DNA of 64,000 bases from a virus: positions 37,717 to 101,716 of the IMG/VR virus record IMGVR_UViG_3300017788_002882; one strand, written 5' to 3'. Shown in pieces: positions 17,939 to 52,775 of this stretch; positions within the stretch are counted from its first letter, which is position 1; each line of letters begins with the position of its first letter. A program made the translations under genes and the position numbers. The notes beneath the pieces are model-generated. The model ran no database searches, was not told the DNA's origin, and saw nothing but the letters and a program-made list of their open reading frames with translations.

Positions 17939-18091
17939 ATGGATATTACAAAACACCCAAATCTATATAAAAAGAAACCACTAAGCGAAGTAAAGAATAG
18001 AACAACTTCATATTTGTCTAATACTGAAAAAGCTAGATTAGACAGTGTAATCAACAAGTTTTTTGAATTATTCATCGCTAAACATTTGTAA
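17939..18091 (+). CDS. Small basic helical protein (50 aa)
   Basis: An ATG at 17939 opens a 50-codon frame, MDITKHPNLYKKKPLSEVKN through ...FELFIAKHL. It lies three bases after the Hint-repeat gene, and its TAA shares a base with the ATG of the SET-domain gene (TAATG), a junction that favours a genuine coupled gene. Lys-rich start and amphipathic C-terminal half, with no recognised motif. Function unknown. Confidence 0.55.
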   Translation: MDITKHPNLYKKKPLSEVKNRTTSYLSNTEKARLDSVINKFFELFIAKHL

Positions 18092-28226: not shown

Positions 28227-28339
28227 TGATTGTAAATAAAAGGGTCTCTTTTTCTCAACTCTTCAAGTTTCTTTTTCAATTCTTTTTTTCTTTTACGTTC
28301 CTTAATTTTTTTAAGAAACCAATCTATAATTTTTTTCAT
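28223..28339 (-). CDS. Very small basic helical protein (38 aa)
   Basis: A 38-codon frame on the minus strand, MKKIIDWFLKKIKERKRKKE to ...RDPFIYNH. Its ATG overlaps the TGA of the carbamoyltransferase gene (ATGA), the same coupling used throughout this region, and it fills the space up to the convergent junction exactly. An amphipathic start followed by a Lys/Arg/Glu-rich helix suggests membrane- or nucleic-acid-associated behaviour, but no family is recognised. It may also be a chance frame in AT-rich DNA. Confidence 0.45.
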   Translation of the reverse strand: MKKIIDWFLKKIKERKRKKELKKKLEELRKRDPFIYNH

Positions 28340-30003
28340 AGTATTTTGTATATAATATAATTATCCAAAACTAACAAGTCCAAATCAGTGTCCCTGAAGG
28401 TTTCTATCGCGTCAGATGGTGTGAGTACCATTGTTTTATCTTTAACATTGAATGATGTATTTAAAATAATTGGAAATCCACTTAACTTTTCGAATTCGAT
28501 AAGTAAGTCATGTATGATAGAATTTTTATATACGGTCTGAATTCTTGATGTTCCATCAACATGTACAACTGCAGATAGTTTATCAGCATACTCTTCTCTA
28601 ACTTTCACAATTTGGTTCATGTATGGTATGTCATCATTAACATGAAAAAATTGGTTTTGTTTTTCCTTGATGACCATTGGGGCGAAAGGTCGGAATCCTT
28701 CCCTTTTCTTAATCAACTTATTAATCCTTGATTTCATATTAGGAATGGTAGGGTCCGCTAAAATGGACCGATGTCCTAATGCTCTTGCCCCAAATTCGAT
28801 TTTATCTGTGTACCACCCAACAACTTTACCTTCGTGAATTTTTGCTGCAACGTAGTTTATCAATCTGTCATAATCGTGAATTTGTATAAAGTTCATATTT
28901 TTAATATTGCCTAAATAAAATTCGACATCATATTTCGGGCCTAAAAAAGGGTCTTGTGTAACTCTAGTGAGTAATTTTTTATTCTCTACTAAGTAATGAA
29001 TACAAGCTCCAACACAGGAACCCGCATCCGATGGAGCAACTGGAATCCATATTTTTTCAAAATCTGAACTAGTAGTAATTTTCCCGTTTGCAGTCCCATT
29101 GTATGCACATCCACCACCTAAACAAAGGTTTTTCCCTTCAAATTTCTTCAAGTTATTAACTATGTCAAATAGAACTTCTTCATAACGTAATTGAACCGCT
29201 GCTGCTAAATTTTGATGTGTAGATGTTATTTCTTCTTCAGTTAATCTTGGTAAAATTCCTATATGTTCAATCAATTTCTCATTGAACATAATTCTTTCTG
29301 ACCTATTCCAACAAAACTTATCCATGTCACAAACAAGTTTACCTCCTTTGAATTCTACGAGACTTCTGATTTTTTCGATATATTCTTCAGGATTACCGTA
29401 TGATGCCAATCCCATCAATTTGTATTCACCTTCGTTAGGTTTAAATCCCAAATACGAAGTCATTGTTGAATAATATAGACCTAATGAATGCGGATATTCT
29501 CCTAAACTATAATATCCAATACCATTATCGGATGCCAATCCAAAAGACAGAGTATCAATTTCACCAACCCCGTCGATTGATAAACAAATTGCATTATCAA
29601 AGTTAGAGGTAAAAAATGAATAGTATTGATGAGATAAATGGTGTTCTGAGTAAAATACCCTCCCTTTGAATGGTTTTAAATGTTCTCTAACTTCCCAAAT
29701 ATTTCTGAAGATTTTAAATAATGATTTTATGGAATGTTTTGGTGAATTAAAAAAATTAGTTTTTGAATTCATCAAAACTCTTTTTAACTTAAGATTTAGG
29801 TCTTCATAATAACAAACTAATTCTATATCATCATAAGAAATATTATACTTTTCGAAAATGTATTGGATTGTGTTTTTGGGGAAAGAACTATCATGTTTAA
29901 TACCTGTAAATTTTTCTTCTTCACAAGCAAAAACTAACTCACCGTCCTTAAATAAACATGCAGAAGAATCGTGGTAAAATGATGAAACACCTAATATATA
30001 CAT
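28336..30003 (-). CDS. NodU/CmcH-family O-carbamoyltransferase
   Basis: 555 residues, the usual length for this family. The N-terminus YILGVSSFYHDSSACLFKDG and the next EEEKFTGIKHDSSFP match the Kae1-like ATP-binding domain (metal-binding HDSS and the EExxF motif); YSEHHLSHQYYSFFTS carries the HHxxHxxxxF motif. The C-terminal YrdC-like part has WYTDKIEFGARALGHRSILA and NKLIKKREGFRPFAPMV. Reaction: transfer of carbamoyl from carbamoyl phosphate (via carbamoyl-AMP) to a hydroxyl, here probably of a sugar. Downstream of a C-methyltransferase, so both may tailor the same sugar. Confidence 0.9.
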   Translation of the reverse strand: MYILGVSSFYHDSSACLFKDGELVFACEEEKFTGIKHDSSFPKNTIQYIFEKYNISYDDIELVCYYEDLNLKLKRVLMNSKTNFFNSPKHSIKSLFKIFRNIWEVREHLKPFKGRVFYSEHHLSHQYYSFFTSNFDNAICLSIDGVGEIDTLSFGLASDNGIGYYSLGEYPHSLGLYYSTMTSYLGFKPNEGEYKLMGLASYGNPEEYIEKIRSLVEFKGGKLVCDMDKFCWNRSERIMFNEKLIEHIGILPRLTEEEITSTHQNLAAAVQLRYEEVLFDIVNNLKKFEGKNLCLGGGCAYNGTANGKITTSSDFEKIWIPVAPSDAGSCVGACIHYLVENKKLLTRVTQDPFLGPKYDVEFYLGNIKNMNFIQIHDYDRLINYVAAKIHEGKVVGWYTDKIEFGARALGHRSILADPTIPNMKSRINKLIKKREGFRPFAPMVIKEKQNQFFHVNDDIPYMNQIVKVREEYADKLSAVVHVDGTSRIQTVYKNSIIHDLLIEFEKLSGFPIILNTSFNVKDKTMVLTPSDAIETFRDTDLDLLVLDNYIIYKIL

Positions 30004-31232
30004 TATAAATTATTTTTACCGATTATTTCGAACTTTGGACATGGTACGATAAATTTACCTCCACGTTCTAAGAATTCATGTTCTCTTTCGATAAATTCAG
30101 AAATAAAGTGCCAAGGTAAAACCAGCAAATAGTCAGGCTCCATTTTTCTGACATCTTCCTCAGATAATATCGGAATGTTTGTACCTATTGTTTTGTGTCC
30201 GTACTTGTAAGGACTTCGTTCTGCAATTACCTCGATTAATGTATCATCTATTCCGAAATACTGTAATAAGGTATTTCCTTTACTTGAAGCTCCATACCCA
30301 CAAATTTTCTTCCCTTTTGCCTTCTCTTCTTTCAGAAAATCCAATGTTTGTTTTTTTAGGTCCTGTACTTTTTCGTAGAAATCCATCCATGTTTCTTCTG
30401 AGTCTAAATTTTGTGTTTTTTCCCAATTTAATATCGATTCAACTCTAACATCACAAACATCACGATAAGGTCTTGTTGCAAATTTAGTCTCATCAGAATT
30501 TTTCTTCTTGATGTAAATTCTAAAACTTCCTCCATTTACATCATTCAATTGACAATCAACTATTTTGAGGTCAGCCTCGATCATCAATTTGTTGAGTGAT
30601 GATAATGACCAATAATAAACATGTTCGTGAGTTATGTTGTCAAACGCTAATTGTTTTATCATCAGAGGAGTATAACTCATTTGAATTACGAACAAACCAT
30701 CATCATCAAGAACTTCATTAATATCTTTAAGAAAATCTATAGGTTCATCCAAATCATAAAACATGGCAATACATGTGATTACCTTAGCCTTTTTTTCCGC
30801 AAACTGTGACCTTTTGTAGGATTCTAAAGTGAAATAATCTTCAATTATTTCATCTGCAAATTGTCTTGATTCAACTGTGAAGGTTTCATCTGTTGGGTCA
30901 ATCCCTAACTTTTTGATTTGCTGAGGTACGTAACCTAATAATGTACCATCATTACATGCTATATCCAACCATAAATCATCTCTCTCTAATTTTTGGACTT
31001 TTAATATACTTGAAACTATGTTGAGTAATTCTTTTCGCATAGTTGTATTTGTTCCACTTCTATACCAATATTTTCCAAACATGGAATGAATTGGAGTACA
31101 CTTTTCTAATCGTGCCGCCCCATATCTTTCATCGATTGTCAGGGTCAAATCATGTTTTCCCGCTCTTCCTTCTTCATCTTGTTTGATGAAATCAGAAACA
31201 TATAAATCACCGAAACTAAATAATTTTTTCAT
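30003..31232 (-). CDS. Sugar C-methyltransferase family protein
   Basis: 409 residues. SAM-binding DLWLDIACNDGTLLGYV near residues 86-102, then FAEKKAKVITCIAMFYDLDE and FVIQMSYTPLMIKQLAFDNI with THEHVYYWSLSSLNKLM. The C-terminal domain holds KICGYGASSKGNTLLQYFGI and IGTNIPILSEE. This is the three-part architecture of NDP-4-keto-6-deoxysugar C-3 methyltransferases (TylC3/NovU type, PF08421-PF13489-PF08484). The N-terminal Cys4 zinc motif is not evident here: the protein starts at the sequence after it. Stop/start overlap with the downstream carbamoyltransferase. Confidence 0.85.
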   Translation of the reverse strand: MKKLFSFGDLYVSDFIKQDEEGRAGKHDLTLTIDERYGAARLEKCTPIHSMFGKYWYRSGTNTTMRKELLNIVSSILKVQKLERDDLWLDIACNDGTLLGYVPQQIKKLGIDPTDETFTVESRQFADEIIEDYFTLESYKRSQFAEKKAKVITCIAMFYDLDEPIDFLKDINEVLDDDGLFVIQMSYTPLMIKQLAFDNITHEHVYYWSLSSLNKLMIEADLKIVDCQLNDVNGGSFRIYIKKKNSDETKFATRPYRDVCDVRVESILNWEKTQNLDSEETWMDFYEKVQDLKKQTLDFLKEEKAKGKKICGYGASSKGNTLLQYFGIDDTLIEVIAERSPYKYGHKTIGTNIPILSEEDVRKMEPDYLLVLPWHFISEFIEREHEFLERGGKFIVPCPKFEIIGKNNL

Positions 31233-31972
31233 ATCAAACTTTTATCTCTTTTAAAACCTTCATTTTGCCCCCAATCCATGAACTTATTGAAAACTGAAAA
31301 ACTATTTATTTCAGAACTTTTCAAATCTCTAACATTCGGTCTTATCAATTTCAAATCAAAATCGGGTAATTGAACCACATAATAATCTAATTTTAAAATT
31401 TCTCGGGCGAATTCTGTATGAATATTTCCAGACATTTTTGTTGGAAGACTATCAATTACGTTAAACAAGGTTTCGAAATGACCCATAAAATAATACTCAA
31501 CCAAATAATATTCTTGTGTTGAAGGTCTACCTGTTATGTATATTGGGGTCAGCCCATAAATGACACCTTCTTTGATTAAACTATGATAGAAATCAGGAGT
31601 GTAATTATAAAATGAATAATTATCTGGTCTTGTCATGATTAACATGTCATATTCAATACCACTTTCTTTAATCATGTTCAATGAACTTTTCATCAAAAAA
31701 AGATGTTTCTCATTATGAAACGCCCTATCTCCTGAAAAATCATAATCGTTCACATCATAAATTTTGATTTTTGCACTTGGAATATGTTCCAAAATTGTGT
31801 CTTCAGTAATGTCTTCTTCAATGTGAACATTCAATACTTTACTTGATTGAACCGACTTTTTCCAAGTGGAAAAATAAACATCACAATCAAGGTCATTCAA
31901 AAACTTCCATGATTTGACTGCAATGTCAAATTGTCTACACATTCCTGAAACTAAAACAGCGGTTTTCATCAT
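31229..31972 (-). CDS. Possible glycosyltransferase of unknown family
   Basis: 247 residues from ATG 31972 (a TTG two codons upstream is less likely). The opening MMKTAVLVSGMCRQFDIAVK and the central YDMLIMTRPDNYSFYNYTPD look like a GT-A type nucleotide-binding start and an acidic motif, and the segment IYGLTPIYITGRPSTQEYYL is reminiscent of phage sugar transferases. I cannot assign a family. It sits between a nucleotidyltransferase and a C-methyltransferase. Overlaps the next gene by four bases. C-terminus KSLI. Confidence 0.5.
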   Translation of the reverse strand: MMKTAVLVSGMCRQFDIAVKSWKFLNDLDCDVYFSTWKKSVQSSKVLNVHIEEDITEDTILEHIPSAKIKIYDVNDYDFSGDRAFHNEKHLFLMKSSLNMIKESGIEYDMLIMTRPDNYSFYNYTPDFYHSLIKEGVIYGLTPIYITGRPSTQEYYLVEYYFMGHFETLFNVIDSLPTKMSGNIHTEFAREILKLDYYVVQLPDFDLKLIRPNVRDLKSSEINSFSVFNKFMDWGQNEGFKRDKSLI

Positions 31973-31997
31973 ATTCAATGTAGTTGAAAAACTTAAA

Positions 31998-32435
31998 TTA
32001 TGAATTAACTTTGAGGTTTTTTTTTATGATAGTCGTAGACACATCTTCGGTATAGGGGATGTAAAGTAAAACAAACCCATTATCATCCAACCATTTTTGT
32101 GTAAAATTCATTTGTTTGTAATAGTCCTTTTTTGCCCAATCACTTCCGATTACTATAAACTTTGGATTTACAGAAAGAACTGTCGGTTTTGAATCTTCCC
32201 CTTCAGTGTTTGGAATTACTTCATCAACGTATTTACAACTTAAGAGTACTTCTTTCCTACCTTCATAACTGATAGTTGGATATTCCCCTTTATATCGGTA
32301 TATGAATTCATCTGTATTCAAAGAAACAACAACATAATCTCCAATTTCTTTACATTGACGTAAAAAATTCACATGACCTCTGTGAAATAAATCAAATGTC
32401 CCTCCAGTGTAAACTTTGCGATTACTCAAACACAT
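31998..32435 (-). CDS. TagD-like cytidylyltransferase
   Basis: 145 residues, standard size for glycerol-3-phosphate cytidylyltransferase-like enzymes. VYTGGTFDLFHRGHVNFLRQ has the HxGH nucleotide-binding motif (His18, His21), followed by GDYVVVSLNTDEF, YEGRKEVLLSCKYVDEVIP, FIVIGSDWAKKDYY and YIPYTEDVSTTIIKK with the family's STT. It activates a phosphorylated polyol or sugar with CTP (or another NTP). A CDP-activated building block for the glycan is a likely product. It overlaps the purine nucleoside phosphorylase gene by ten bases. Confidence 0.87.
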   Translation of the reverse strand: MCLSNRKVYTGGTFDLFHRGHVNFLRQCKEIGDYVVVSLNTDEFIYRYKGEYPTISYEGRKEVLLSCKYVDEVIPNTEGEDSKPTVLSVNPKFIVIGSDWAKKDYYKQMNFTQKWLDDNGFVLLYIPYTEDVSTTIIKKNLKVNS

Positions 32436-33217
32436 CTTAAAACATCATTCAATATCAACCACACACGTTCAACAGCTTTATTTGCTGTGTCCTGTACTTC
32501 ATTATGGTTTACACCCGACTTCCCAACAATATTTGTAACCACGGACATAGAAAATATTTTCATCCCTAATTGTTTTCCAACAATCACTTCAGGTATGGTT
32601 GACATCCCAACAGCGTCAGATCCTATTAATTTCAAAAATCTACGTTCAGCAGGCGTTTCATATGTTGGTCCAGATAATGCAGTGAGAACTCCTTGTTTGA
32701 CTCTAAAATTATTTTTATCACCAGTGAATAATCCTACATCTATCAAATCTTTATCATAAACAGATGACATATCAATAAATCTTTCACCTTCGAGTTTTCC
32801 AATCAATGGGTTGGTTCCCATCAAATTTATGTGGTCATTGATTAACATGATGTCTCCGACTTCGAAAGATTCATTTATACCTCCGACCGCATTTGTGGTA
32901 ATCAAAGTTTCAACTCCCAAAGATTTCATAACTCTTATGGGATATGTAATTTCCTGCATCGTATGACCCTCATAATAATGATTCCTACCCTGCATCAAAA
33001 CTAAATTGATTTCACCTATTTGACCGAATACTAAATTACCACTATGTCCTTCAATACCTGTATTCAAAAAATGAGGAATTTCTCGATAATTTATTATGAT
33101 TGGGTCACTTACTTTTTCTACAATTTCACCTAAACCAGACCCCAATATAATTCCAACAGTTGGATGTAAACCAACTCTATTATCAAGGAATTCTATGGAA
33201 TCTCTCAGTTTTTTCAT
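32426..33217 (-). CDS. Purine nucleoside phosphorylase (trimeric type)
   Basis: 263 residues. Clear family motifs in order: VGIILGSGLGEIVEK (phosphate-binding), FLNTGIEGHSGNLV (His of the phosphate site), MQGRNHYYEGH, TTNAVGGINESFEVGDIMLI, ALSGPTYETPAERRFL, GSDAVGMSTIPEVIVGKQLG and VVTNIVGKSG with the Asn that binds the purine base. It cleaves purine nucleosides with phosphate to ribose-1-phosphate and base. Unusual in a glycan cluster: it may scavenge purines for phage DNA synthesis or supply sugar-1-phosphate. Start and stop overlap with both neighbours. Confidence 0.93.
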   Translation of the reverse strand: MKKLRDSIEFLDNRVGLHPTVGIILGSGLGEIVEKVSDPIIINYREIPHFLNTGIEGHSGNLVFGQIGEINLVLMQGRNHYYEGHTMQEITYPIRVMKSLGVETLITTNAVGGINESFEVGDIMLINDHINLMGTNPLIGKLEGERFIDMSSVYDKDLIDVGLFTGDKNNFRVKQGVLTALSGPTYETPAERRFLKLIGSDAVGMSTIPEVIVGKQLGMKIFSMSVVTNIVGKSGVNHNEVQDTANKAVERVWLILNDVLRCV

Positions 33218-33753
33218 TTTGTGTATAATTGGGGATATTCAACAATAACATGAATTCCTCCTTCATTGTAAGCTTCTTTGTACTTATCTTCAATTAATTC
33301 ATGAGATAATAGATTATGAAATGTAATATTTTTACAAAGTGACTGATACTCAGTGAAATAATCCCCTTTGTGTTGATGTCCTGGGTCTATCGGATAATCC
33401 GACCCTTTACCTAATCTGACAATTATATTGGGATTGAATTGATTATTGCTCATCAATTTTATTTTGTCCAAATGATTCAATAATTGATTTGTAGCACAAA
33501 TCAAAAAATCCCATCTGGGGTAAAAAGTAATCACGAAATGTCCAGTCATCGCCATTCCCAAAGACATACCCATTTGTGAATCCTCCATTACTGGTAATTC
33601 AATAATTTTATTTTTTGGAACATTTCCCAACGTTGTACTCATTGGGTTTCCTGGATAAAGAGTTTGTTGTCCAATAAAAATTGTATCGGATTGTTCGGCT
33701 AAAAAAGTCATTGCATTTGTCAATGCATCCTTATAACTTGTATCTTGATTCAT
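33214..33753 (-). CDS. Thiamine-diphosphate E1 beta-like subunit, pyrimidine domain only
   Basis: 179 residues. It matches only the N-terminal pyrimidine-binding domain of E1 beta subunits (2-oxoacid dehydrogenase/transketolase family). SDTIFIGQQT is followed by KNKIIELPVMEDSQMGMSLG with the conserved Glu expected to activate ThDP, then FVITFYPRWDFLICATNQLL (the FxDF...DQ region), NIIVRLGKGSDYPIDPGHQH and the closing YTK. The C-terminal transketolase_C domain is absent. Its partner alpha-like subunit is encoded at 34952-35581, separated by one gene. Likely forms a heteromer that decarboxylates or transfers a two-carbon unit. Confidence 0.78.
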   Translation of the reverse strand: MNQDTSYKDALTNAMTFLAEQSDTIFIGQQTLYPGNPMSTTLGNVPKNKIIELPVMEDSQMGMSLGMAMTGHFVITFYPRWDFLICATNQLLNHLDKIKLMSNNQFNPNIIVRLGKGSDYPIDPGHQHKGDYFTEYQSLCKNITFHNLLSHELIEDKYKEAYNEGGIHVIVEYPQLYTK

Positions 33754-34967
33754 ATTAAACTATTGTAGAAATTAAAGTCTGTTTTGTCATTTTTGATGTC
33801 TTCGAAAATTTGAATATTTTTATCGAAACGATTTTTATTATTCTTGAAAAAACTTATTATATCTTGTTTTTTGGTGTTCAATCTTAAGATTTCATTGATA
33901 ATCATTTCAAATCTTTTTTTTGCATTTGGTTCATTGTCATAACTATGATCGACAATATCATCGAAAAAATCAAAATTATACCTATCCTTCATTTTTTTAA
34001 TATGATTTGCACTTGCCATTATAATTGGAATTTGAGAAAAATATAAAGGTATAAAAGATTTTTCACTCAGGATTATAATATCATTTTTTTCAAAATTGGT
34101 TTCAGTAACTATGTTAATGTATGAATTTTTGTATGGATTGTTTGAATAAGAGGCAACTGTGTCGAATGTATGAGGAGGATAATCAACTTGATAATTTTTT
34201 TCGTAAATGCTATTATGTATTTGAACATCAAGAAGTTTGATAATTTCTTTTTCATATATCAAAACCTCACTTTCAGTAAAGAATTGACTCAAATATGGTT
34301 TGAAATTTGAAAGACTGCCCGAATTGATGAAAAGTTCTCTCATTTCATATCCCCTTATCCAACTCCAATCTGTATCGTCAACTATGTTATGGTACATCAA
34401 ATAAACTAATAGAGCGAACCGATGTATTTTCACCTTTCGATTATATGACATGAATAAAAAATTTCTCTCTTTTTTGTAATTGTAAGGAAATCTGGTCAAT
34501 TCATTAGCAATTGCGAACTTTCCATTATTAGTTGTATGAGTAATCAAATCAACATCAAACTTTGTTTTTACATCATGATTGATTTCATTACAATTAATTA
34601 CTACAAATTTTTTGGTAGGAATACCCATTTTTTTCAATAGGGCATCGAGACTATTGATTAAATTATCATCATCAGATTCAGCATCGTTCTTAACTATCAC
34701 ATAAAAATTCGGATTGAATTTTAATAAGTCAATTACCTTTTCACTGAAGGGTAAATCTTGTTTTGAAACAATTTCTGCCGCTAAATAATATCGATATTCA
34801 TAAAAATAATAATACTTTTGATTATCGTTAGGAATTTCATTGATGTTGAAAACTTTGAATTTGAACCCTTCAGGATTACGCATTCCTACATAACAATCAA
34901 AATAATTGATTACATCCTGTTTGAATACATCGACCTCATCATAAACTAAATTCAAAAAATTACCCAT
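33750..34967 (-). CDS. Unassigned protein, [IL][ST]EK family member 2
   Basis: 405 residues from ATG 34967; an upstream GTG (34991) would extend into the neighbouring gene. NFLFMSYNRKVKIHRFALLV in the middle, NIVTETNFEKNDIIILSEKS near 300 and SQIPIIMASANHIKKMKDRY, then FFDDIVDHSYDNEPNAKKRF. It is closest to 46238-47578, sharing IVTE, IPI and the HSYDN segment. GT-B-like glycosyltransferase is a guess from the [IL][ST]EK motif. It lies between the two genes of the thiamine-dependent enzyme, which is unexpected. Overlaps its upstream neighbour by 16 bases. C-terminus NSLI. Confidence 0.65.
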   Translation of the reverse strand: MGNFLNLVYDEVDVFKQDVINYFDCYVGMRNPEGFKFKVFNINEIPNDNQKYYYFYEYRYYLAAEIVSKQDLPFSEKVIDLLKFNPNFYVIVKNDAESDDDNLINSLDALLKKMGIPTKKFVVINCNEINHDVKTKFDVDLITHTTNNGKFAIANELTRFPYNYKKERNFLFMSYNRKVKIHRFALLVYLMYHNIVDDTDWSWIRGYEMRELFINSGSLSNFKPYLSQFFTESEVLIYEKEIIKLLDVQIHNSIYEKNYQVDYPPHTFDTVASYSNNPYKNSYINIVTETNFEKNDIIILSEKSFIPLYFSQIPIIMASANHIKKMKDRYNFDFFDDIVDHSYDNEPNAKKRFEMIINEILRLNTKKQDIISFFKNNKNRFDKNIQIFEDIKNDKTDFNFYNSLI

Positions 34968-35581
34968 TTTCCAGTTCCGTAGTGCGGCCACTCTTTTTTA
35001 TATTTATACCAAATAACATCTTCAGGAATTTCGGTTTTCTTAGCCCATGTTTCAATAGTTGGTGTATTAGTTGAAACTTCATTATCTTCCACAACAAATC
35101 TAATAGGTAAATCGAAATTTTTAGCGTACTTATAATTTTCCATGAAAGTACCAGTTTCGAATGTCATGTCTCCAACGAAACACCACACCATTTCATCAAT
35201 ACCTTTTCGTTTGTTTGCCATCGCAACACCAACCGCTATTGGTATTATACCACCAACAATTGCCGAACTATAAAACTTCTCGTCTTTATTGACGATTGTA
35301 ATCGACCTACCTTCCAATATTTCTTTTTCCAACCATTCAGGAGATATTCCTTTCAGTAAAGCATGATAATGTGACCTCCACGTTGAAAATACCCAGTCTT
35401 TCCTTGAAATTCTTTTGAATATTTCAACAAGATGTTTTTCATTACCTCCACTCAAATGAACAGGGCCTCGTATTTTACCTGACTCCCAATGTTCAACTAT
35501 TTTATTTTCAAAATGAATAAGTTCCTCTTCATTCCAGTTGTGTTCTCTAACTATTGGATATTGCTCTAAATTTTTTGTCAT
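34952..35581 (-). CDS. Thiamine-diphosphate E1 alpha-like subunit
   Basis: 209 residues. WVFSTWRSHYHALLKGISPE corresponds to the E1 alpha region that reads xxSxHRxHxxxLxxG in relatives, SSAIVGGIIPIAVGVAMANK follows, and WCFVGDMTFETGTFMENYKY with FVVEDNEVSTNTP is the ThDP/metal-binding GDG-to-NN stretch. Two differences from the consensus are visible: GDG is GDM, and the Asn that usually ligates Mg2+ in that stretch appears to be Lys (MENYKYA). Metal binding may therefore differ. Encoded in the same operon as the beta-like subunit. About one-third shorter than a typical alpha subunit. Confidence 0.78.
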   Translation of the reverse strand: MTKNLEQYPIVREHNWNEEELIHFENKIVEHWESGKIRGPVHLSGGNEKHLVEIFKRISRKDWVFSTWRSHYHALLKGISPEWLEKEILEGRSITIVNKDEKFYSSAIVGGIIPIAVGVAMANKRKGIDEMVWCFVGDMTFETGTFMENYKYAKNFDLPIRFVVEDNEVSTNTPTIETWAKKTEIPEDVIWYKYKKEWPHYGTGKWVIF

Positions 35582-35584
35582 AAC

Positions 35585-36196
35585 TTATTTATTAAAAGAT
35601 ACAATTGAGTACCTCGAATTTTTGGCAAATTCCTCAACTGAAGAAACAAAATGAGGAGACCTGAAGACTTTATTGTTCAATAATGTCACTCGATTAAATT
35701 TGGGTAAAATTTGTTTGTTAAATTCGTAATCATTATCGTCTGTAATGTTGAGAATACCTCCCCAATCCCAAATCCATTCTTCATTAACATAATATATTAA
35801 ATTGATATTACCAGCATAATCATCAACATGAGTTCTAAAGTAATCCCCTTTATCTGATTTGTGGCATCTTATGTCAAATTCGGTTAAATCAAAGGGAGAA
35901 ACTTTTTTGAGGAAAGGAACGAAAAATTCATTATAGATATTTTTCAAGTCCTCGTTTTTTTCCAAAATGAATGACCTACTAAATCTTGTTGAATAAACTT
36001 CGTCTTTCTTTGGTAAATAGGGTGATTTCGTTTTGAACACATGTTCATAATGATTTTCTCTCACCTGATGTATTTTTTCCCAAGAATTTTCTGAAGTGAA
36101 CAAATCTTGTATATTTTTTGCAACATCGATTGGTAAAAAGTTGTCAATTATTGAATATCCGATTTCACCTAATTCGTATCTAACCTTATCTAACAT
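35585..36196 (-). CDS. 2OG-Fe(II) oxygenase
   Basis: 203 residues. [20 protein letters not shown] gives the His123-x-Asp125 ligands and the next strand; [15 protein letters not shown] is the GGxLxL turn; [17 protein letters not shown] carries distal His182, and RYSIVSFNK Arg195. This is close to the Tpa1-like/PF13661 type. The N-terminal half ([20 protein letters not shown]) is the usual helical entry. It is the sixth 2OG oxygenase-like gene in the window. It lies three bases from the alpha-subunit gene. Confidence 0.87.
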
Positions 36197-36205
36197 ATGA
36201 ACGAT

Positions 36206-36613
36206 TTATTCCCAACTTATACCCCAATCTTTGAACTCCGCAGCCAAACAATCAGTTTTATAATCTTTTCTGCCACCTACAATTTCTTGTATTCTATTTT
36301 TTGCTGTGTTACGAACTCCATTCAATCCATGAGTCAGTTCCAAATTATTTCCCTCTTTAATTCCTTTTCTGTAATTAGATTCATTGTGCCATATATGTAA
36401 ATTAGTCTGAGCTAAAACTACAATCGATCTTAAAGTCTTTGCGTCAATCACCACATTTTTTTCTTTAAGAATCAAATCAATATCATGTTCAATGTCTCTA
36501 ATTTCTTGTGCGTATTCCTCTTTATGTTCGGGAATAAAAACTTCTTTCAACTGAGAAATACTTAATCTGTCAATCAGTTCCGCTAATGTTGGTAGGTACT
36601 TTCTTTTTTCCAT
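36206..36613 (-). CDS. Conserved-looking phage protein of unknown function
   Basis: 135 residues, predicted mostly helical. MEKRKYLPTLAELIDRLSIS and QLKEVFIPEHKEEYAQEIRD start the protein; an Asp/His-rich central part (EIRDIEHDIDLIL) is followed by NLHIWHNESNYRKGIKEGNN and a basic C-terminal half. I recall similar short proteins near phage glycan genes, but cannot name a function and have no search result. It is one base from the GDP-mannose dehydratase gene and nine from the oxygenase gene, so it is probably in the same operon. Confidence 0.6.
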   Translation of the reverse strand: MEKRKYLPTLAELIDRLSISQLKEVFIPEHKEEYAQEIRDIEHDIDLILKEKNVVIDAKTLRSIVVLAQTNLHIWHNESNYRKGIKEGNNLELTHGLNGVRNTAKNRIQEIVGGRKDYKTDCLAAEFKDWGISWE

Positions 36614-36614
36614 T

Positions 36615-37622
36615 TTATCTATTTAAAAATTTTCTTCCTTTATTAATTCTATCTCTCCAATATTCCAATAAATCATCCATTGTTTGATTGAAGTTTATTG
36701 TCGGCTCCCACCCTGTCATCTCTCTAAATTTTGTTGTATCAGGTATTTGTAAATCTGCGTCAATAGGTCTAAGACGACTTTTATCAACAACAATATCTAT
36801 ATCTTTCACTGTAGATTTAGAAATAAGATAATTCAAAGTATCTCCCACTTTACATGTATGAGTACCACCAATATTATAATATGCACCAGGTGATGGATTG
36901 ATGTTCAATAACATCCAATATGCTCTCACTGCGTCTCTAACATCGGCATAAGTTCGAAGGGAGTCTAAATTACCCACAAATATTTGCGGTTGTTGTAACC
37001 CATGTTCAATCATTGCAATTTGTTTTGCGAAAGTTGATTCGTGAAAAACATCACCTCTCCTTGGACCTGTATGTGTAAACATTCTAGTCGTCATTACCAT
37101 CATTTTGTATGCTTCTCCGTAATACCTTCCGATTAAATCAGTTCCAACTTTTGAAATCGCATATGGTGATGCTGGGTGTAAGGAACATTCCTCATTGATG
37201 GGTAATTTTTCTTTTGGAACTCTCCCGAAAATTTCGCTCGATGCACAAACATGAATGTAAGCGTTTTTATGTGGGGATTTTCTGATGGCTTCTAATAAAT
37301 TTGCAGTCCCAATTATGTTCGTCTGCAAAGTTTCAATCGGGGAATCAAAACTTGTTTGCGGGTATGATTGAGCCCCAAGGTGAAAAACATAATCAGGTTT
37401 GGAAATTTCTATTGCATTAACAATTGAACTGTAATCATTTAAATCTCCATAAATCAGTTTTATCCTGTCCGTAGTGTTAATCACCTCAGTTAAATGTTCA
37501 ATGTTGTCCATTGATTCATTCCATCTACAAAATCCATATATTTTCATATCAGTTTTCTCTAATAAGAAATCCAACATATGTGATCCCACCATTCCTAAAA
37601 CACCAGTTATTAATATATTCAT
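36615..37622 (-). CDS. gmd: GDP-mannose 4,6-dehydratase
   Basis: 335 residues. The short-chain dehydrogenase fold starts MNILITGVLGMVGSHMLDFL with the GxxGxxG NAD(P)-binding loop. DYVFHLGAQSYPQTSFDSPI, ASSEIFG (catalytic Ser/Glu region), SPYAISKVGTDLIGRYYG with YxxxK, TTRMFTHTGPRRGDVF and LDSLRTYADVRDAV are as in GDP-mannose 4,6-dehydratases. It would make GDP-4-keto-6-deoxymannose, the entry point for GDP-fucose, perosamine and colitose. Together with the ColD-like gene at 41406-42593 and the reductases between, this suggests GDP-colitose. GDP-mannose must come from the host. Confidence 0.85.
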   Translation of the reverse strand: MNILITGVLGMVGSHMLDFLLEKTDMKIYGFCRWNESMDNIEHLTEVINTTDRIKLIYGDLNDYSSIVNAIEISKPDYVFHLGAQSYPQTSFDSPIETLQTNIIGTANLLEAIRKSPHKNAYIHVCASSEIFGRVPKEKLPINEECSLHPASPYAISKVGTDLIGRYYGEAYKMMVMTTRMFTHTGPRRGDVFHESTFAKQIAMIEHGLQQPQIFVGNLDSLRTYADVRDAVRAYWMLLNINPSPGAYYNIGGTHTCKVGDTLNYLISKSTVKDIDIVVDKSRLRPIDADLQIPDTTKFREMTGWEPTINFNQTMDDLLEYWRDRINKGRKFLNR

Positions 37623-37635
37623 AATTTAATTTTTT

Positions 37636-38802
37636 TTAAGCATTTTCATATATCTCTCTGAAAATATTTGCCGTCAAACTCCAATTATAATCAATTCCAA
37701 ATGCATCACAATATCCGATATCAAAATCTTTAAGTATAATTCTGTAGGTTTCTTTATTTTCTTTTATCAATAATTTTAATTTTTCGGGAATAAACAAATC
37801 GTTATAAACGATATTGGTTAGTGTAATCACGTTAGACCAAGCAATACTTCCAACAGAATCTTTTACTTCATTGTAATTTTTATCTCTAATCCCAATTAAG
37901 TTATCTATAATACCTAAACACCTTAATTTCATAGAATCGGTGTTATCGAAATCATAGTTGAATATTGGGCCATATAAACCTAATCCATATTTTGACAAAT
38001 TTTTATTTTGCCCTTTGTTACCCAATATTAAAAAAGGGTTTCCTAATAAAACCCCTCGGAATGTTTTTTCAGTATGAAAAATAAATTCATTTGGTTTGTC
38101 ATCAATACCGAATGATTCCAAACGTGGTGCGGTTTCGGTTACAACATCGATTAAATTGTTTACGTTTAGTAACTCATATGAATAAACTTTATGAGGTTTG
38201 TTATAGTCCCGACTTTCTTCAAGAGTTAATTTTCTTTCCTTAAAATATTCATAGGGCCAATTATCTTGAACATGTGCCCACGTATTAACCCCATAATCGA
38301 ATAATCCAAATTTACATAAATAATCCATAAACTCGGCTCGGTGACTTCTTACATGATTATTCAAATTCAAGTAGAGTTTTTTTATTATCTTGTTTGGATT
38401 GTATAATTCCATTGGGGTCTTCCCATAATTTTCAATCAAGGCATAGAAAGTGTAATGTAATAGTGCGGTAGGCCAAAAAAGTACTTCGAAATTTTTGATT
38501 GGGTTTGTATTCAGATTCGAGTAAGCCTCACTGAAATCACAACCGACAAGAAGGAAGCACCTTATATCGTATTTTGTTAAAATATTTTCAAAATTACTCA
38601 CATCTTCCAAATGACTCGGGTTAGAAATATAATCATGCCTCAAGTAATCATGAAACCTGTTATCCGATTCTTCCCATGGTTGCCAAATTATTACATGGTT
38701 ACTCGGTTTTATTTTTTCTATAACATGAGTAATATCTGAGAGATTTTTGGATAAATTCGGGAAAATGATGAGTACATCTTTTATAAACTTATATGAAACC
38801 AT
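37636..38802 (-). CDS. Unassigned protein, [IL][ST]EK family member 3
   Basis: 388 residues. KKLYLNLNNHVRSHRAEFMD and later FIFHTEKTFRGVLLGNPFLI with GNKGQNKNLSKYGLGLYGPI, followed by NYDFDNTDSMK. It keeps the family pattern (Asn...His-Arg block, TEK motif, a P/F/I strand and an acidic DxDN in place of SYD), although the TEK segment is less typical. Length equals that of 24047-25213. No catalytic function proven; GT-B-like transferase suspected. It lies between two deoxysugar genes. Confidence 0.6.
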   Translation of the reverse strand: MVSYKFIKDVLIIFPNLSKNLSDITHVIEKIKPSNHVIIWQPWEESDNRFHDYLRHDYISNPSHLEDVSNFENILTKYDIRCFLLVGCDFSEAYSNLNTNPIKNFEVLFWPTALLHYTFYALIENYGKTPMELYNPNKIIKKLYLNLNNHVRSHRAEFMDYLCKFGLFDYGVNTWAHVQDNWPYEYFKERKLTLEESRDYNKPHKVYSYELLNVNNLIDVVTETAPRLESFGIDDKPNEFIFHTEKTFRGVLLGNPFLILGNKGQNKNLSKYGLGLYGPIFNYDFDNTDSMKLRCLGIIDNLIGIRDKNYNEVKDSVGSIAWSNVITLTNIVYNDLFIPEKLKLLIKENKETYRIILKDFDIGYCDAFGIDYNWSLTANIFREIYENA

Positions 38803-38820
38803 TTTTTTTCCAATAATAAA

Positions 38821-39777
38821 TCAAACTTTATGAAGTTTGAACCATTCAATTGTTTCTTTTATTCCTTGTTCAAAAAAGTATGATGGTTCAAATTCTAATT
38901 CATTTTTTATTCGTTCAATACTCACCGCTCTAAATGGAATTGTTGTGGGTTTGGAATCATCCCAAACAACTTCAGGATTTAGTTCACTAACTTTAACAAT
39001 TGTATCCACAATTTGACCAATAGATATTCCACCACCATATCCCAAATTATATGGTCTCATAGATTCTCCTTTTTCCAAAATCAATAAACAACCTTTAACA
39101 ACGTCCTTTACATAAAGAAAGTCCCTAACAACATCAGGTGACCCCCATACTACAAATGGGTTCTCACCGCTCAATAATCGTTTTATTAATGCGGGTACAA
39201 CATGGCAAGTTTTTAAATCAAAATTATCATAAGGTCCAAAAATTGCAGTCCCTCTTGCAATACAGATTTCCATTTCACCCAAACGTGATACGTGTTCCAT
39301 GAGTTTTTCTCTATATCTTCTCATCCACCCATACCCATAATAAGATTTATAAGGTTCATCAATCCAAAACTCATCTTCGGTCAATGGTCTTCTTATGTCG
39401 GGATAGCCAGTGGAACTATTTAAATCTAAGAATCTTTTTACTTTTGATTTGTAAGATGCTTCTAACACATTTCCAATTATTTGTATTTGATTCAGAGAAA
39501 TTTGTACGTCTGTTGGAACTGTCGATGGATGTGCTATTTGTCCTGCACAATGAATTACGTAATCTGACCCTTCAACAAGTTTGAAACAATCTTTCAGTTT
39601 TGTTAAGTCCAAATTTTCATGAACGAAAATATCATCATGACTATACTGTAATGGAGATTTGTGAGTATGTGTTACAACTTTTGCTCCTTGATTTACAAGT
39701 TCAATCAAATAATGAGTACCAATGAATCCTGACCCACCTGTGACTACAACTTTTTTATTTTTAAAAAAATCTTTCAT
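38821..39777 (-). CDS. NAD(P)-dependent epimerase/reductase (GDP-fucose-synthase-like)
   Basis: 318 residues. KVVVTGGSGFIGTHYLIELV is the Rossmann start; DYVIHCAGQIAHPS, FLDLNSSTGYPD and YYGYGWMRRYREK follow, so the catalytic Tyr-x-x-x-Lys appears as Tyr-x-x-x-Arg. C-terminal segments RGTAIFGPYDNFDL, GSPDVVRDFLYVKDVVKGCL and YNLGYGGGISIGQI are as in GDP-fucose synthases/epimerases. The Arg substitution may weaken catalysis. Candidate for the ColC-type step, or a divergent partner of 40442-41413. Confidence 0.8.
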   Translation of the reverse strand: MKDFFKNKKVVVTGGSGFIGTHYLIELVNQGAKVVTHTHKSPLQYSHDDIFVHENLDLTKLKDCFKLVEGSDYVIHCAGQIAHPSTVPTDVQISLNQIQIIGNVLEASYKSKVKRFLDLNSSTGYPDIRRPLTEDEFWIDEPYKSYYGYGWMRRYREKLMEHVSRLGEMEICIARGTAIFGPYDNFDLKTCHVVPALIKRLLSGENPFVVWGSPDVVRDFLYVKDVVKGCLLILEKGESMRPYNLGYGGGISIGQIVDTIVKVSELNPEVVWDDSKPTTIPFRAVSIERIKNELEFEPSYFFEQGIKETIEWFKLHKV

Positions 39778-40445
39778 ATCAATTTATTTGTTTCGATATA
39801 TCTTTTGTATGAAATTTCACGTTTTCCTATTCCTATTGCGTCATCCAAAAATAAATCACATGGGTCATTGTGAATATAATTTGACAATGAACTACCATAT
39901 AATAATTCATTTTTCACAAAAATTAAGTTTCCCGTCATACAAACTAACGAATAATCCTTAGTTTTAGCTAAATCAACAGTCGACTTGAAACTACTACTGA
40001 AAGTTTTACCATCATAGACATGTACAGTCTGACAATCGAAAAAGGGATTTATTTCTATAACAACAACATTAGGAGTATAATCATTAAGACTATTCCATAT
40101 ATAATAGTCATTTCCGTCAATATCAATACTAAGTATGTCAAAATTTAATTCCAAACCAGTTTTTTTCAAAACATTATCCAATCGACTATCTCCAAGTGGA
40201 GTTATTTCTTCGTAAATAATTATACCCCCCTCTAACTGTGGTAAATGAAAAGGATTTTTATCAATATAAACTCCATACCATCCGTAGTTTTGAACTAAAT
40301 TATATGTATTGGAGAAAATAAGATGATTCATTCCTACCTCACAACACTGTTTGTTATTCAACTTTAACTCATCGATTAAAAATTGCAAAACTCCATCTTC
40401 TCCATACTGAGAATATATTGAATATGAATTGTCAATTATTTTCAA
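39774..40445 (-). CDS. FkbM-family methyltransferase (TTG start)
   Basis: 223 residues. The best start is a TTG at 40445; no ATG lies near the conserved N-terminus (MKIIDNSYSIYSQYGEDGVL), whose SQYGEDGV matches this FkbM subgroup. CCEVGMNHLIFSNTYNLVQN is the SAM motif region, GWYGVYIDKNP the strand-2 acidic region, and FDILSIDIDGNDYYIWNSLN the later Asp/Gly motif. The stop of the upstream epimerase gene overlaps the TTG, so translation is probably coupled. Probable O-methyltransferase on a sugar. C-terminus NKLI. Confidence 0.8.
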   Translation of the reverse strand: MKIIDNSYSIYSQYGEDGVLQFLIDELKLNNKQCCEVGMNHLIFSNTYNLVQNYGWYGVYIDKNPFHLPQLEGGIIIYEEITPLGDSRLDNVLKKTGLELNFDILSIDIDGNDYYIWNSLNDYTPNVVVIEINPFFDCQTVHVYDGKTFSSSFKSTVDLAKTKDYSLVCMTGNLIFVKNELLYGSSLSNYIHNDPCDLFLDDAIGIGKREISYKRYIETNKLI

Positions 40446-41413
40446 TGATTTACAAAAGGGTTGTAACGCTTATCTAAAATGTCTTTATTATTAAGGAACC
40501 AATCTGTAGTTTTTTGAATACCATCTTCCAAAGAAATTTGATTTTTGAAACCATATTTCTTCATTTTATTCATACTCATCAATCTTTTTTTATCACCACT
40601 TGGTATATCTGTGTGCCACTTTACATCAATTTTTCTACCAGAGTGTTTAATGACTAATTCAACTAATTCCTTTATTGAATTTCCTTCTCCTGAACCCAAA
40701 TTGACTGGTTCGGTAATTTTATTTTCAACCGCGAATATCATACCATCAGCAACATCTTCAGCGTGAATGAAATCACGGATTTGAGACCCATCTCCAAAAA
40801 CGTCTAAAACTTCGTTCTCTTGAACTTTGCGTATCAAAGAAGGCACAACCATTGCATTCGCTGGATTAAAGTTGTCATAGGGTCCGTAAACGTTTGCAGG
40901 CCTTACTATCGACACTCGGTTCCAACCATATTGTTTGGAGTAGGTTTCAGTCTGTAATTCCCCGATTCTTTTTGCCCATCCAGCATACATGTCGTTCGGT
41001 GATGGAAATGTACCCCACACACTTTCTTCATAAAAAATTTCAGAAGGAGCATAAACTCCAACTGAACTTGTAAACATATACCATTTGACATCAGACTCAA
41101 ATGCCGCCTGAGTCATATTGGTATTGAACTGTAACATTGGAACCATAAAATCAACAGGTTGATTCATACACATTACTGGAGAACCTTTCACTCCTGCTAA
41201 ATGAAAAATATAGTCTTTGCCCTTACAAATTTCCAAACAGTTATTGAAATGTCTTAGATCAGTTTTAACAAACTCTACATTATCAGGTAAATCTATCGGG
41301 TCGGTTAAATCTGCAATAGTAACCTGAGCCCCTCTATTCATTAATTTCTTGACAAGTTGTCTTCCTATCATTCCAGATCCGCCAGTCACTAATACTTTTT
41401 GATTTTCAAACAT
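40442..41413 (-). CDS. NAD(P)-dependent epimerase/reductase (GDP-fucose/colitose-synthase-like)
   Basis: 323 residues. KVLVTGGSGMIGRQLVKKLM with GxxGxxG, DYIFHLAGVKGSPVMCMNQP, MFTSSVGVYAPSEIFYEESV, PNDMYAGWAKRIGELQTETY with the intact Tyr-x-x-x-Lys, then RPANVYGPYDNFNPANAMVV and FGDGSQIRDFIHAEDVADGM. These are as in GDP-4-keto-6-deoxymannose 3,5-epimerase/4-reductases and ColC. Adjacent to and overlapping the ColD-like gene, it is the best candidate for the final step to GDP-colitose. Confidence 0.83.
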   Translation of the reverse strand: MFENQKVLVTGGSGMIGRQLVKKLMNRGAQVTIADLTDPIDLPDNVEFVKTDLRHFNNCLEICKGKDYIFHLAGVKGSPVMCMNQPVDFMVPMLQFNTNMTQAAFESDVKWYMFTSSVGVYAPSEIFYEESVWGTFPSPNDMYAGWAKRIGELQTETYSKQYGWNRVSIVRPANVYGPYDNFNPANAMVVPSLIRKVQENEVLDVFGDGSQIRDFIHAEDVADGMIFAVENKITEPVNLGSGEGNSIKELVELVIKHSGRKIDVKWHTDIPSGDKKRLMSMNKMKKYGFKNQISLEDGIQKTTDWFLNNKDILDKRYNPFVNH

Positions 41414-42593
41414 CGTTTAATATTTTAGTAAGGTTTATAATTTGTTCATCAGTAAGGTCGATATGATTACCAATATAAAGTGAGTTATTGTGAACATAAT
41501 TTACAAAATCTAAATCTCCCACCACCTTGAAAGGAAAATTATCCAAATATGGTTGGTTTGCTTGATTTCCTCCACCAGCAGTTCCCAGTCTGTACTCTAT
41601 ACCTCTCAAATCCAAACTATCACAAACACTGTCAAAATCATCATTGATATGGAATCTATCTTTATAGAGAGGACGAATTATGAGAGGTAAAGCAAAACTA
41701 CTATTACCGTCGACATTGAATTCAGTAAAGTACTTTTCATTATCCAAATTTTGTAACCAAATTGACAAATTGTGTCTTCGTTTTTCAACGTAACTATCAA
41801 TTCTTTTCATCTGTTCAATCCCCAAAACAGCATTTAACTCCGTACTTCTCATATTGAATCCTGCAACTGCAAAAGTGAACAAAGGGTTAAGTTCAGGATA
41901 ATTTTGTTTATAATAATTTTGAGTTTCTTCAGACACTTCCCTTGTCATACCGTGAGACCTGAACAACTTTGACAACTCATCAATCTTTTCATTGTTTGTA
42001 CAAATCATACCACCCTCAATTGTTGTAATGTGGTGTCCGAAGTAGAATGAAAAAATGGAAATATCTCCGAAAGTTCCAACTTTTTTACCATCATAAGTCG
42101 CCCCATGAGCCTCACAACAATCCTCTATTAACAATATATCATTCTCTTTAGCAATTCTGATAATTTCTTCATTAATCCCGTTGAACCCCAAACAATGAAC
42201 CAAAACTATCGCCTTAGTTTTCTTGGTAATTGCTTTCTTAATATTTTCTGAAGTAATTGCCAAATTATCCAAAGAAATATCAACAAACACGGGAGTCATT
42301 CCCAATTGAACCACGGAAGAAATGTCTGACACCCAGCCCAATGGGGGCACAATGACTTCACCAATTCCTTTGAGTTCTTTGACAATTGCGATTGACAGAA
42401 AATTTCCAGAGTTTCCTGAGTTCAACATTGTACTATGTTTAACCCCCAACCAATTACTCCAAATTTTCTCAAATTCTTGTACTTTGACTCCGTTTGTTAA
42501 TCTTTGATTTGATAAAATAAAACTCGACAAAACTTCTCTGTCTTCCCGACTAACATTGTCATTAATCAAAGGCCAATTATAAGTCTTTCCCAT
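41406..42593 (-). CDS. colD: ColD-like GDP-4-keto-6-deoxymannose 3-dehydratase
   Basis: 395 residues, full-length DegT/DnrJ/EryC1/StrS fold. Near 157-164 LIEDCCEAHGATYDGKKVG supplies the PLP-ring Asp, and at 181-195 FSFYFGHHITTIEGG stands in the place of the internal-lysine loop. In normal aminotransferases the loop has Lys (as in xxxxK.iTTGEGG); here the first His of the pair aligns with it. A His in that position is the hallmark of ColD, which removes the 3-hydroxyl of GDP-4-keto-6-deoxymannose using PLP and glutamate. With Gmd and two reductases nearby, GDP-colitose synthesis is strongly suggested. Confidence 0.83.
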   Translation of the reverse strand: MGKTYNWPLINDNVSREDREVLSSFILSNQRLTNGVKVQEFEKIWSNWLGVKHSTMLNSGNSGNFLSIAIVKELKGIGEVIVPPLGWVSDISSVVQLGMTPVFVDISLDNLAITSENIKKAITKKTKAIVLVHCLGFNGINEEIIRIAKENDILLIEDCCEAHGATYDGKKVGTFGDISIFSFYFGHHITTIEGGMICTNNEKIDELSKLFRSHGMTREVSEETQNYYKQNYPELNPLFTFAVAGFNMRSTELNAVLGIEQMKRIDSYVEKRRHNLSIWLQNLDNEKYFTEFNVDGNSSFALPLIIRPLYKDRFHINDDFDSVCDSLDLRGIEYRLGTAGGGNQANQPYLDNFPFKVVGDLDFVNYVHNNSLYIGNHIDLTDEQIINLTKILNDV

Positions 42594-52761: not shown

Positions 52762-52775
52762 TTTTTTTTGTTTGA

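What the first reader, a model, noticed from the sequence alone, without database searches (positions are those of the whole stretch)
36615..42593. Phage-encoded GDP-colitose pathway marked by a ColD-type histidine
Gmd (36615-37622), a full-length StrS-fold enzyme with His where the PLP lysine stands (FSFYFGHH, 181-188), and two GDP-fucose-synthase-like reductases lie together. In ColD a His in that place makes the enzyme a 3-dehydratase instead of an aminotransferase. GDP-colitose (3,6-dideoxy-L-galactose) is thus the most economical product. Two [IL][ST]EK and FkbM genes lie among them and may transfer or methylate it.
Basis: partly seen in the sequence, partly recalled or inferred. Interest (0 to 1): 0.66.

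Follow-up and report, generated by a model that had tools for sequence, protein, structure and literature searches.

The report
Phage cassette for a dideoxy-heptose sugar
This virus carries a run of genes that probably turns a seven-carbon sugar nucleotide (GDP-heptose) into a rare 3,6-dideoxy-heptose, perhaps with an extra carbon branch; the proposed six-carbon sugar, colitose, is less likely, and no product has been tested.

Summary
41406-42593 encodes a full-length StrS-fold protein with His where the PLP lysine stands. The catalytic one is H187, the first of the pair; it is His in 140 of 140 aligned sequences and aligns with E. coli ColD H188. The Fe-S cysteines of the CDP enzyme E1 are absent, so "ColD-type 3-dehydratase" is well supported.

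The colitose reading is not. The "Gmd" (36615-37622) groups with the Campylobacter GDP-D-glycero-D-manno-heptose 4,6-dehydratase (52% identity), not E. coli Gmd (32%). Of 64 viral relatives of the ColD gene, 52 carry a dehydratase of this type nearby and 1 a Gmd type. Of 80 bacterial relatives, 57 lie near a heptose-kinase (HddA-like) gene. The two "GDP-fucose-synthase-like reductases" lack GFS catalytic residues. Best reading: GDP-heptose to GDP-6-deoxy-4-keto-heptose to GDP-3,6-dideoxy-4-keto-heptose, a known route in C. jejuni HS:5.

The cassette is larger than reported (28336-42593) and includes a compact thiamine-diphosphate enzyme pair linked to ColD in viruses and bacteria. That suggests a carbon branch at C4, as in yersiniose; this step is inference. 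A better phage colitose candidate is Synechococcus phage S-CAM7.

The parts
41406..42593 (-). ColD-type sugar 3-dehydratase (StrS fold, H187 in place of the PLP lysine), 395 aa
   Evidence: Pfam PF01041; best PDB hits ColD 2gms/3gr9 E 1e-55, then E1 3bcx E 2.5e-47; H187 in 140/140; no Fe-S cysteines at the E1 insertion
36615..37622 (-).
   Evidence: best PDB hit 7us5 E 9e-107 against E. coli Gmd E 3e-43; 52% vs 32% identity and tree
40442..41413 (-). SDR1, GDP-fucose-synthase-like but without the GFS C109/H179 equivalents and without Tyr-x3-Lys
38821..39777 (-). SDR2, GDP-fucose-synthase-like, invariant Y149-x3-R153 and C191/H192, Thr at the GFS C109 position
39774..40445 (-). FkbM-like methyltransferase candidate (no Pfam match); only in the closest viral relatives
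37636..38802 (-). [IL][ST]EK protein 1, putative GT-B glycosyltransferase (by similarity to its paralogue)
   Evidence: alignment A2
33750..34991 (-). [IL][ST]EK protein 2, putative GT-B glycosyltransferase; true start probably the conserved Met-9 (about 34967)
   Evidence: AlphaFold2 mean pLDDT 89; Foldseek best OtsA, also GT10 fucosyltransferase, E about 1e-3 to 1e-2, TM about 0.4; relatives fused in frame to TPP-beta in 8 viral loci
34952..35581 (-). compact thiamine-diphosphate enzyme, alpha (PP-domain) subunit, 209 aa
   Evidence: PF00676, TIGR03182; GD..(E)DN motif seen directly; near ColD in 54/64 viral loci
33214..33753 (-). compact thiamine-diphosphate enzyme, beta (Pyr-domain) subunit, 179 aa, without the E1-beta C-terminal domain
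   Evidence: PF02779; PRK09212; conserved E57
36206..36613 (-). 135-aa conserved all-helical protein of unknown role; viral companion gene
   Evidence: 50/64 viral loci, 0/80 bacterial; no Pfam or PHROG; AF2 pLDDT 87, no PDB match
35585..36196 (-). 2OG-Fe(II) oxygenase, likely tailoring enzyme
   Evidence: PF13661/PF13640; 14/64 viral loci
32426..33217 (-). purine nucleoside phosphorylase, above the NCBIfam cut-off
   Evidence: PF01048; PRK08202 310 bits against 218
31998..32435 (-). cytidylyltransferase-like protein (TagD / RfaE domain II type)
   Evidence: PF01467; TIGR01518, TIGR02199
30003..31232 (-). sugar C-methyltransferase-like protein
   Evidence: PF08484 and PF13489
28336..30003 (-). 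sugar O-carbamoyltransferase-like protein (NodU/CmcH type)
   Evidence: PF02543 and PF16861; 20/64 viral loci

Best explanation
The cassette is a phage-encoded branch of GDP-heptose metabolism. [quoted passage not shown] 36615-37622 dehydrates it to GDP-6-deoxy-4-keto-heptose; the His-type PMP enzyme 41406-42593 removes the C3 hydroxyl to give GDP-3,6-dideoxy-4-keto-heptose; the two divergent SDRs and probably the compact thiamine-diphosphate pair process the 4-ketone (reduction, epimerisation, or attachment of a C2 unit from pyruvate); [IL][ST]EK GT-B-like enzymes transfer the sugar to a phage or host glycan. Shown here: family membership, the His substitution, the phylogenetic placement of the dehydratase and the conserved gene linkage. 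Inferred: substrates, order of steps, product and acceptor.
For: Dehydratase: best solved relative is GDP-heptose 4,6-dehydratase; 52% identity to 7us5 vs 32% to E. coli Gmd, and a tree that places it with 7us5 away from Gmd; its closest isolated-phage homologues (Bellamy, SynMITS9220M01; 73% to 7us5) lie beside a GHMP kinase and nucleotidyltransferase, in SynMITS9220M01 also a phosphoheptose isomerase. Linkage: in 64 viral ColD loci, 52 have the heptose-type dehydratase and 1 a Gmd type; in 80 bacterial ColD loci, 57 have an HddA-like kinase, 35 an HddC-like transferase, 31 the heptose-type dehydratase, 2 a Gmd type. A SAR116 genome has TPP-alpha, TPP-beta, ColD, SDR1, two more SDRs, the dehydratase, HddC and HddA in one run, and its kinase matches solved heptose kinases. 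ColD: H187 in 140/140, no E1 Fe-S cysteines. Chemistry: the same two-dehydration route to GDP-3,6-dideoxy-heptoses is proven in C. jejuni HS:5 and HS:11 (PMC10440746).
Against: No HddA, HddC or GmhA homologue was found in this record by tblastn, and no GHMP-kinase or NTP-transferase family match in 16 other viral records with the cassette, so the route needs host GDP-heptose and the host is unknown. The C. jejuni C3-dehydratase is 62-67% identical to E. coli ColD, whereas this protein is only 31% identical to that ColD, so substrate transfer by homology is indirect. No RmlC-like C5-epimerase lies in the cassette. The large viral/Clostridial dehydratase clade has no assayed member that I know of. 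Linkage shows association, not substrate.
Confidence: 0.68

Rival explanations
1. One reading: GDP-mannose to GDP-4-keto-6-deoxy-mannose (Gmd), then ColD, then a ColC-like SDR gives GDP-L-colitose.
For: The His-type StrS enzyme is real; the dehydratase and both SDRs share superfamilies with Gmd and GDP-fucose synthase; GDP-mannose is a common host metabolite (general knowledge), so no special host pathway is needed.
Against: Dehydratase groups away from Gmd and scores 172 bits against the 415-bit Gmd cut-off; SDR1 lacks the GFS Cys/His and Tyr-x3-Lys, SDR2 lacks Cys and Lys; ColD neighbours are heptose genes.
Confidence: 0.15
2. C-branched variant (an extension of the best explanation, not exclusive of it): after the two dehydrations the compact thiamine-diphosphate pair adds a C2 unit from pyruvate to the C4 ketone and an SDR reduces the acetyl group, giving a GDP-linked 4-C-branched 3,6-dideoxy-heptose (logic of yersiniose A, but GDP-linked and heptose-based).
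For: TPP-alpha near ColD in 54/64 viral loci and TPP-beta in 41/64; TPP gene within 1.5 kb of ColD in 18/80 bacterial loci; in four bacterial genomes checked the compact copy (203-213 aa frame) occurs once, at the ColD site, while full-length E1-alpha-like genes, where found, lie elsewhere; E1-like alpha/beta enzymes make C-branched deoxysugars in antibiotics and YerE does so on CDP-3,6-dideoxy-4-keto-glucose (PMC12247030).
Against: Cyanophages S-SM2 and P-TIM68 have the fused enzyme with no ColD homologue within about 9 kb either side, so it need not act on a 3-deoxy sugar; the Clostridial ColD-dehydratase pairs mostly lack it; no donor or acceptor is shown.
Confidence: 0.35
3. The His enzyme or cassette is inactive or a relic.
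For: SDR1 lacks a conserved catalytic Tyr.
Against: Intact, tightly packed reading frames, and strict conservation of active-site residues across 58 viral homologues, argue for selection.
Confidence: 0.03

Closest known systems
GDP-3,6-dideoxy-heptose pathway of Campylobacter jejuni HS:5/HS:11 (PMC10440746)
   Same: GDP-heptose 4,6-dehydratase followed by a PLP-dependent ColD-type C3-dehydratase
   Different: C. jejuni uses a C5-epimerase and a C4-reductase and encodes hddA/hddC/gmhA beside them; here two divergent SDRs and a thiamine enzyme pair, and no heptose kinase found in the record; its C3-dehydratase is 62-67% identical to E. coli ColD, this one 31%
GDP-L-colitose pathway (Gmd, ColD, ColC) of E. 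coli O55 and Y. pseudotuberculosis
   Same: His-type StrS 3-dehydratase on a GDP-4-keto-6-deoxy sugar
   Different: dehydratase is heptose-type, not Gmd; no SDR with the epimerase/reductase residues
Synechococcus phage S-CAM7 cluster (KU686212, 162097-165155; L006)
   Same: phage-encoded ColD-type enzyme next to a nucleotide-sugar 4,6-dehydratase and a GFS-like SDR
   Different: there the dehydratase is a true Gmd (62% to E. coli) and the SDR keeps the GFS active site: the better colitose candidate
Yersiniose A pathway (YerE/YerF) and alpha-ketoacid-dehydrogenase-2 branching enzymes (PMC12247030)
   Same: 3,6-dideoxy-4-keto sugar nucleotide plus a thiamine enzyme as the proposed logic
   Different: YerE is a decarboxylase-superfamily enzyme acting on a CDP-hexose; here a compact split E1-type pair beside GDP-heptose enzymes, activity untested

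Membership tests
ColD-type sugar 3-dehydratase | StrS/DegT fold, full length | tested here: met
   PF01041 245 bits; aligned to ColD over residues 5-383
ColD-type sugar 3-dehydratase | His in place of the PLP lysine | tested here: met
   H187, 140/140
ColD-type sugar 3-dehydratase | no Fe-S cysteine insertion (unlike E1/DdhC) | tested here: met
   alignment to 3bcx
ColD-type sugar 3-dehydratase | 3-dehydratase activity | not testable with these tools
   needs assay
GDP-mannose 4,6-dehydratase (Gmd) | closest to characterised Gmd; reaches the Gmd model cut-off | tested here: not met
   172 vs 415 bits; 32% to E. coli Gmd, outside its clade
GDP-D-glycero-D-manno-heptose 4,6-dehydratase | closest to the characterised enzyme and in one clade with it | tested here: met
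   7us5 E 9e-107, 52% identity, clade support 0.84
GDP-D-glycero-D-manno-heptose 4,6-dehydratase | genes of GDP-heptose synthesis in the same genome | tested here: inconclusive
   present for bacterial relatives (57/80 HddA-like), not found in this record or 16 other viral records; this record may be a fragment and the host is unknown
GDP-colitose pathway | ColC/GFS-type SDR with Cys109, His179 and Tyr-x3-Lys | tested here: not met
   SDR1 V118/M188 and no Tyr-x3-Lys; SDR2 T123, Y149-x3-R153, H192; GFS residues recalled from general knowledge; ColC itself was not aligned
GDP-3,6-dideoxy-heptose pathway (C. jejuni type) | C5-epimerase (sugar-epimerase family with His/Tyr dyad) | tested here: not met
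   no such Pfam domain among the cassette proteins; an RmlC-like gene is in the SAR116 cluster
alpha-ketoacid-dehydrogenase-2 type branching enzyme | E1-like alpha/beta pair with intact thiamine-diphosphate motifs | tested here: met
   motif seen in the sequence
alpha-ketoacid-dehydrogenase-2 type branching enzyme | carboligation to a keto sugar | not testable with these tools
   needs assay

The most novel reading that the evidence does not exclude
A phage-encoded route, shared with scattered bacteria, to a GDP-linked C4-branched 3,6-dideoxy-heptose made by a compact split thiamine-diphosphate enzyme acting after a ColD-type dehydratase: a sugar kind not described in the papers I could search.
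Probability: 0.33. Interest if true: 0.72.

Novelty: new variant of a known kind. Interest (0 to 1): 0.5.

Why it matters
It would put rare dideoxy-heptose chemistry, known from a Campylobacter capsule, into a cassette conserved in dozens of viral genomes, and would give the large His-type StrS subfamily seen in at least 80 bacterial genomes a concrete substrate (GDP-6-deoxy-4-keto-heptose). It also links a compact thiamine enzyme of unknown function (PHROG 34187) to keto-sugar chemistry, which can be tested directly in vitro. For annotation, it warns that 'Gmd + ColD + GFS-like' need not mean colitose.

Tried and rejected
(1) Colitose as product: rejected as best reading after the dehydratase tree and neighbour counts. 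(2) E1/DdhC-type (CDP, Fe-S) enzyme: rejected because the cysteines are missing. (3) Phage-encoded supply of GDP-heptose: not found in this record or in 16 viral records. (4) T4-type late promoters (TATAAATA): 11 seen, 10 expected, so uninformative. (5) Link of the cassette to collagen-like fibres: a repeat lies 20 kb upstream in the window, but only 1 of 93 viral loci has one in the fetched stretch. (6) Fold of the 135-aa companion: helical bundle, no PDB match. (7) Phage kinship and host through the gp46-like protein: only distant hits. (8) Literature searches for phage colitose or phage branched heptose: nothing specific in the held library. The ColD tree was rooted on E1, so it does not decide whether the window clade is nearer to ColD or to E1.
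Full report
Setting. The window is 37717-101716 of a 101,716-base IMG/VR viral record, 32% G+C. The genes named in the finding are all present on the - strand. They are part of a longer, tightly packed, co-oriented run; most neighbouring frames overlap by a few bases or are separated by less than 25. The sixteen genes from 42593 down to 28336 are: ColD-like, SDR1, FkbM-like, SDR2, [IL][ST]EK-1, dehydratase, 135-aa protein, 2OG oxygenase, TPP-alpha, [IL][ST]EK-2, TPP-beta, PNP, cytidylyltransferase-like, a 249-aa unknown, C-methyltransferase, carbamoyltransferase.

The histidine. The best solved relatives of 41406-42593 are E. coli ColD structures (E 1e-55), followed by the CDP-sugar dehydrase E1 (E 2.5e-47). 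FSFYFGHHIT aligns with FSSFYSHHIA of ColD. PDB entries of ColD carry N or K in the first place of HH, so the catalytic residue is H187, the first His. It is invariant in 58 viral homologues and 140 aligned sequences. E1 has the cysteine-rich stretch CYCAPGCDNTCKK here; this protein has MTREVSEETQNYY, so it is of the Fe-S-independent ColD kind.

The 'Gmd'. The best solved relative of 36615-37622 is GDP-D-glycero-D-manno-heptose 4,6-dehydratase, 7us5, E 9e-107; E. coli Gmd is E 3e-43. It scores 172 bits against the 415-bit Gmd cut-off. In a 94-sequence tree it lies with 7us5 and the cyanophage proteins of Bellamy and SynMITS9220M01; E. coli Gmd, the S-CAM7 Gmd and three further Gmd-type proteins lie across a long branch. 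Identities: 52% to 7us5, 32% to E. coli Gmd. The Bellamy and SynMITS9220M01 genes sit beside a GHMP kinase and nucleotidyltransferase, and in SynMITS9220M01 near a gene annotated phosphoheptose isomerase.

Neighbours of ColD elsewhere. Scans returned 64 viral and 80 bacterial loci (further viral loci by the dehydratase). Within the fetched stretch, viral loci have the heptose-type dehydratase in 52, Gmd-type in 1, TPP-alpha in 54, TPP-beta in 41 and the 135-aa gene in 50 of 64. Bacterial loci have an HddA-like kinase in 57, an HddC-like transferase in 35, the heptose-type dehydratase in 31, Gmd-type in 2 and TPP-alpha in 26 of 80. Many loci are related, so these counts are not independent events. 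The bacterial loci span Clostridia, Verrucomicrobia, Cyanobacteria, Nitrospinae, Planctomycetes, Pelagibacteraceae and others; a few of the closest 'bacterial' ones (L102, L104, L105) may be viral contigs in metagenome-assembled genomes. The SAR116 genome locus L103 carries RmlC-like, TPP-alpha, TPP-beta, ColD, SDR1, two SDRs, dehydratase, HddC and HddA consecutively. HddC and HddA were the best NCBIfam matches but below the curated cut-offs; the kinase also matches solved heptose kinases, E about 1e-34.

The SDRs. Against E. coli GDP-fucose synthase, SDR1 has V118 and M188 at or next to the C109 and H179 positions and a shifted Tyr that is Phe in 23 of 55 homologues. SDR2 keeps Tyr but has Arg for Lys and Thr for Cys, and keeps His. 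The S-CAM7 enzyme keeps all of these residues. What SDR1 and SDR2 do is open.

The thiamine pair. TPP-alpha (209 aa) and TPP-beta (179 aa, no C-terminal E1-beta domain) look like a compact E1. One PHROG of 405 positions covers both, matching fused proteins in cyanophages S-SM2 and P-TIM68, where phosphoheptose isomerase is near but ColD is not. TPP-beta lies within 150 bases upstream of ColD in 17 of 64 viral loci, and a TPP gene within 1.5 kb in 18 of 80 bacterial loci. E1-like pairs and YerE are known to attach carbon branches to keto sugars (PMC12247030). A C4 branch is therefore a reasonable but unproven proposal.

Transferases. A model of [IL][ST]EK-2 (mean pLDDT 89) is GT-B-like, with weak matches to OtsA, GT10 fucosyltransferase and T4 glucosyltransferases (TM about 0.3-0.4). 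In eight viral loci TPP-beta and an [IL][ST]EK-2 relative form one open frame, which ties this transferase to the cassette.

Known chemistry. C. jejuni HS:5 and HS:11 make GDP-3,6-dideoxy-heptoses by a 4,6-dehydratase, a ColD-type C3-dehydratase, a C5-epimerase and a C4-reductase (PMC10440746). The first two steps match this cassette at family level.

Limits. No activity, substrate, host or glycan is known. No heptose kinase or guanylyltransferase gene was found in this record or in 16 other viral records; these records may be fragments. Placement of the dehydratase is strong, but the large viral/Clostridial part of its clade has no assayed member that I know of.

Noticed in passing
L006 8091-11149 (Synechococcus phage S-CAM7 162097-165155): True Gmd (62% to E. 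coli), GDP-fucose synthase with full active site and a ColD-type enzyme are consecutive; a better phage GDP-colitose candidate than the window, annotated only as a CDP-sugar dehydrase.
   Followed up: partly
window 36206-36613: 135-aa all-helical protein, 65-96% identical across 25 aligned viral members, in 50 of 64 viral ColD loci and 0 of 80 bacterial; no Pfam, PHROG, PDB or annotated-phage match.
   Followed up: partly
L016, L017, L018, L019, L020, L021, L025, L065: TPP-beta and an [IL][ST]EK-2-like putative glycosyltransferase are fused in one open frame.
   Followed up: partly
L183 and L184 (cyanophages S-SM2, P-TIM68): Compact thiamine enzyme with alpha and beta parts fused, beside a zinc alcohol dehydrogenase, sugar kinase and phosphoheptose isomerase, without ColD.
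   Followed up: partly
window 10153-10794: A 213-aa StrS-like protein that seems to lack the middle of the fold (profile positions 97-167 missing), next to a PglD-like acyltransferase.
   Followed up: no
window 15197-17935: 912-aa protein whose C-terminal half holds three similar Hint/intein-like segments, each starting CF(V/I)xGT and ending HN.
   Followed up: no
window 63019-63999: Collagen-like GSSG/GTSG repeat protein with a C-terminal chaperone-like domain, upstream of the long glycan gene run.
   Followed up: partly
window 51298-58459: Two radical SAM proteins and two GT7-type galactosyltransferase-like proteins fused to LamG-like domains.
   Followed up: no
window 18091-18546 and 19129-19602: Two related proteins that read like SET-domain methyltransferases (GVGxFAI), each followed by a protein with oxygenase-like features.
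   Followed up: no
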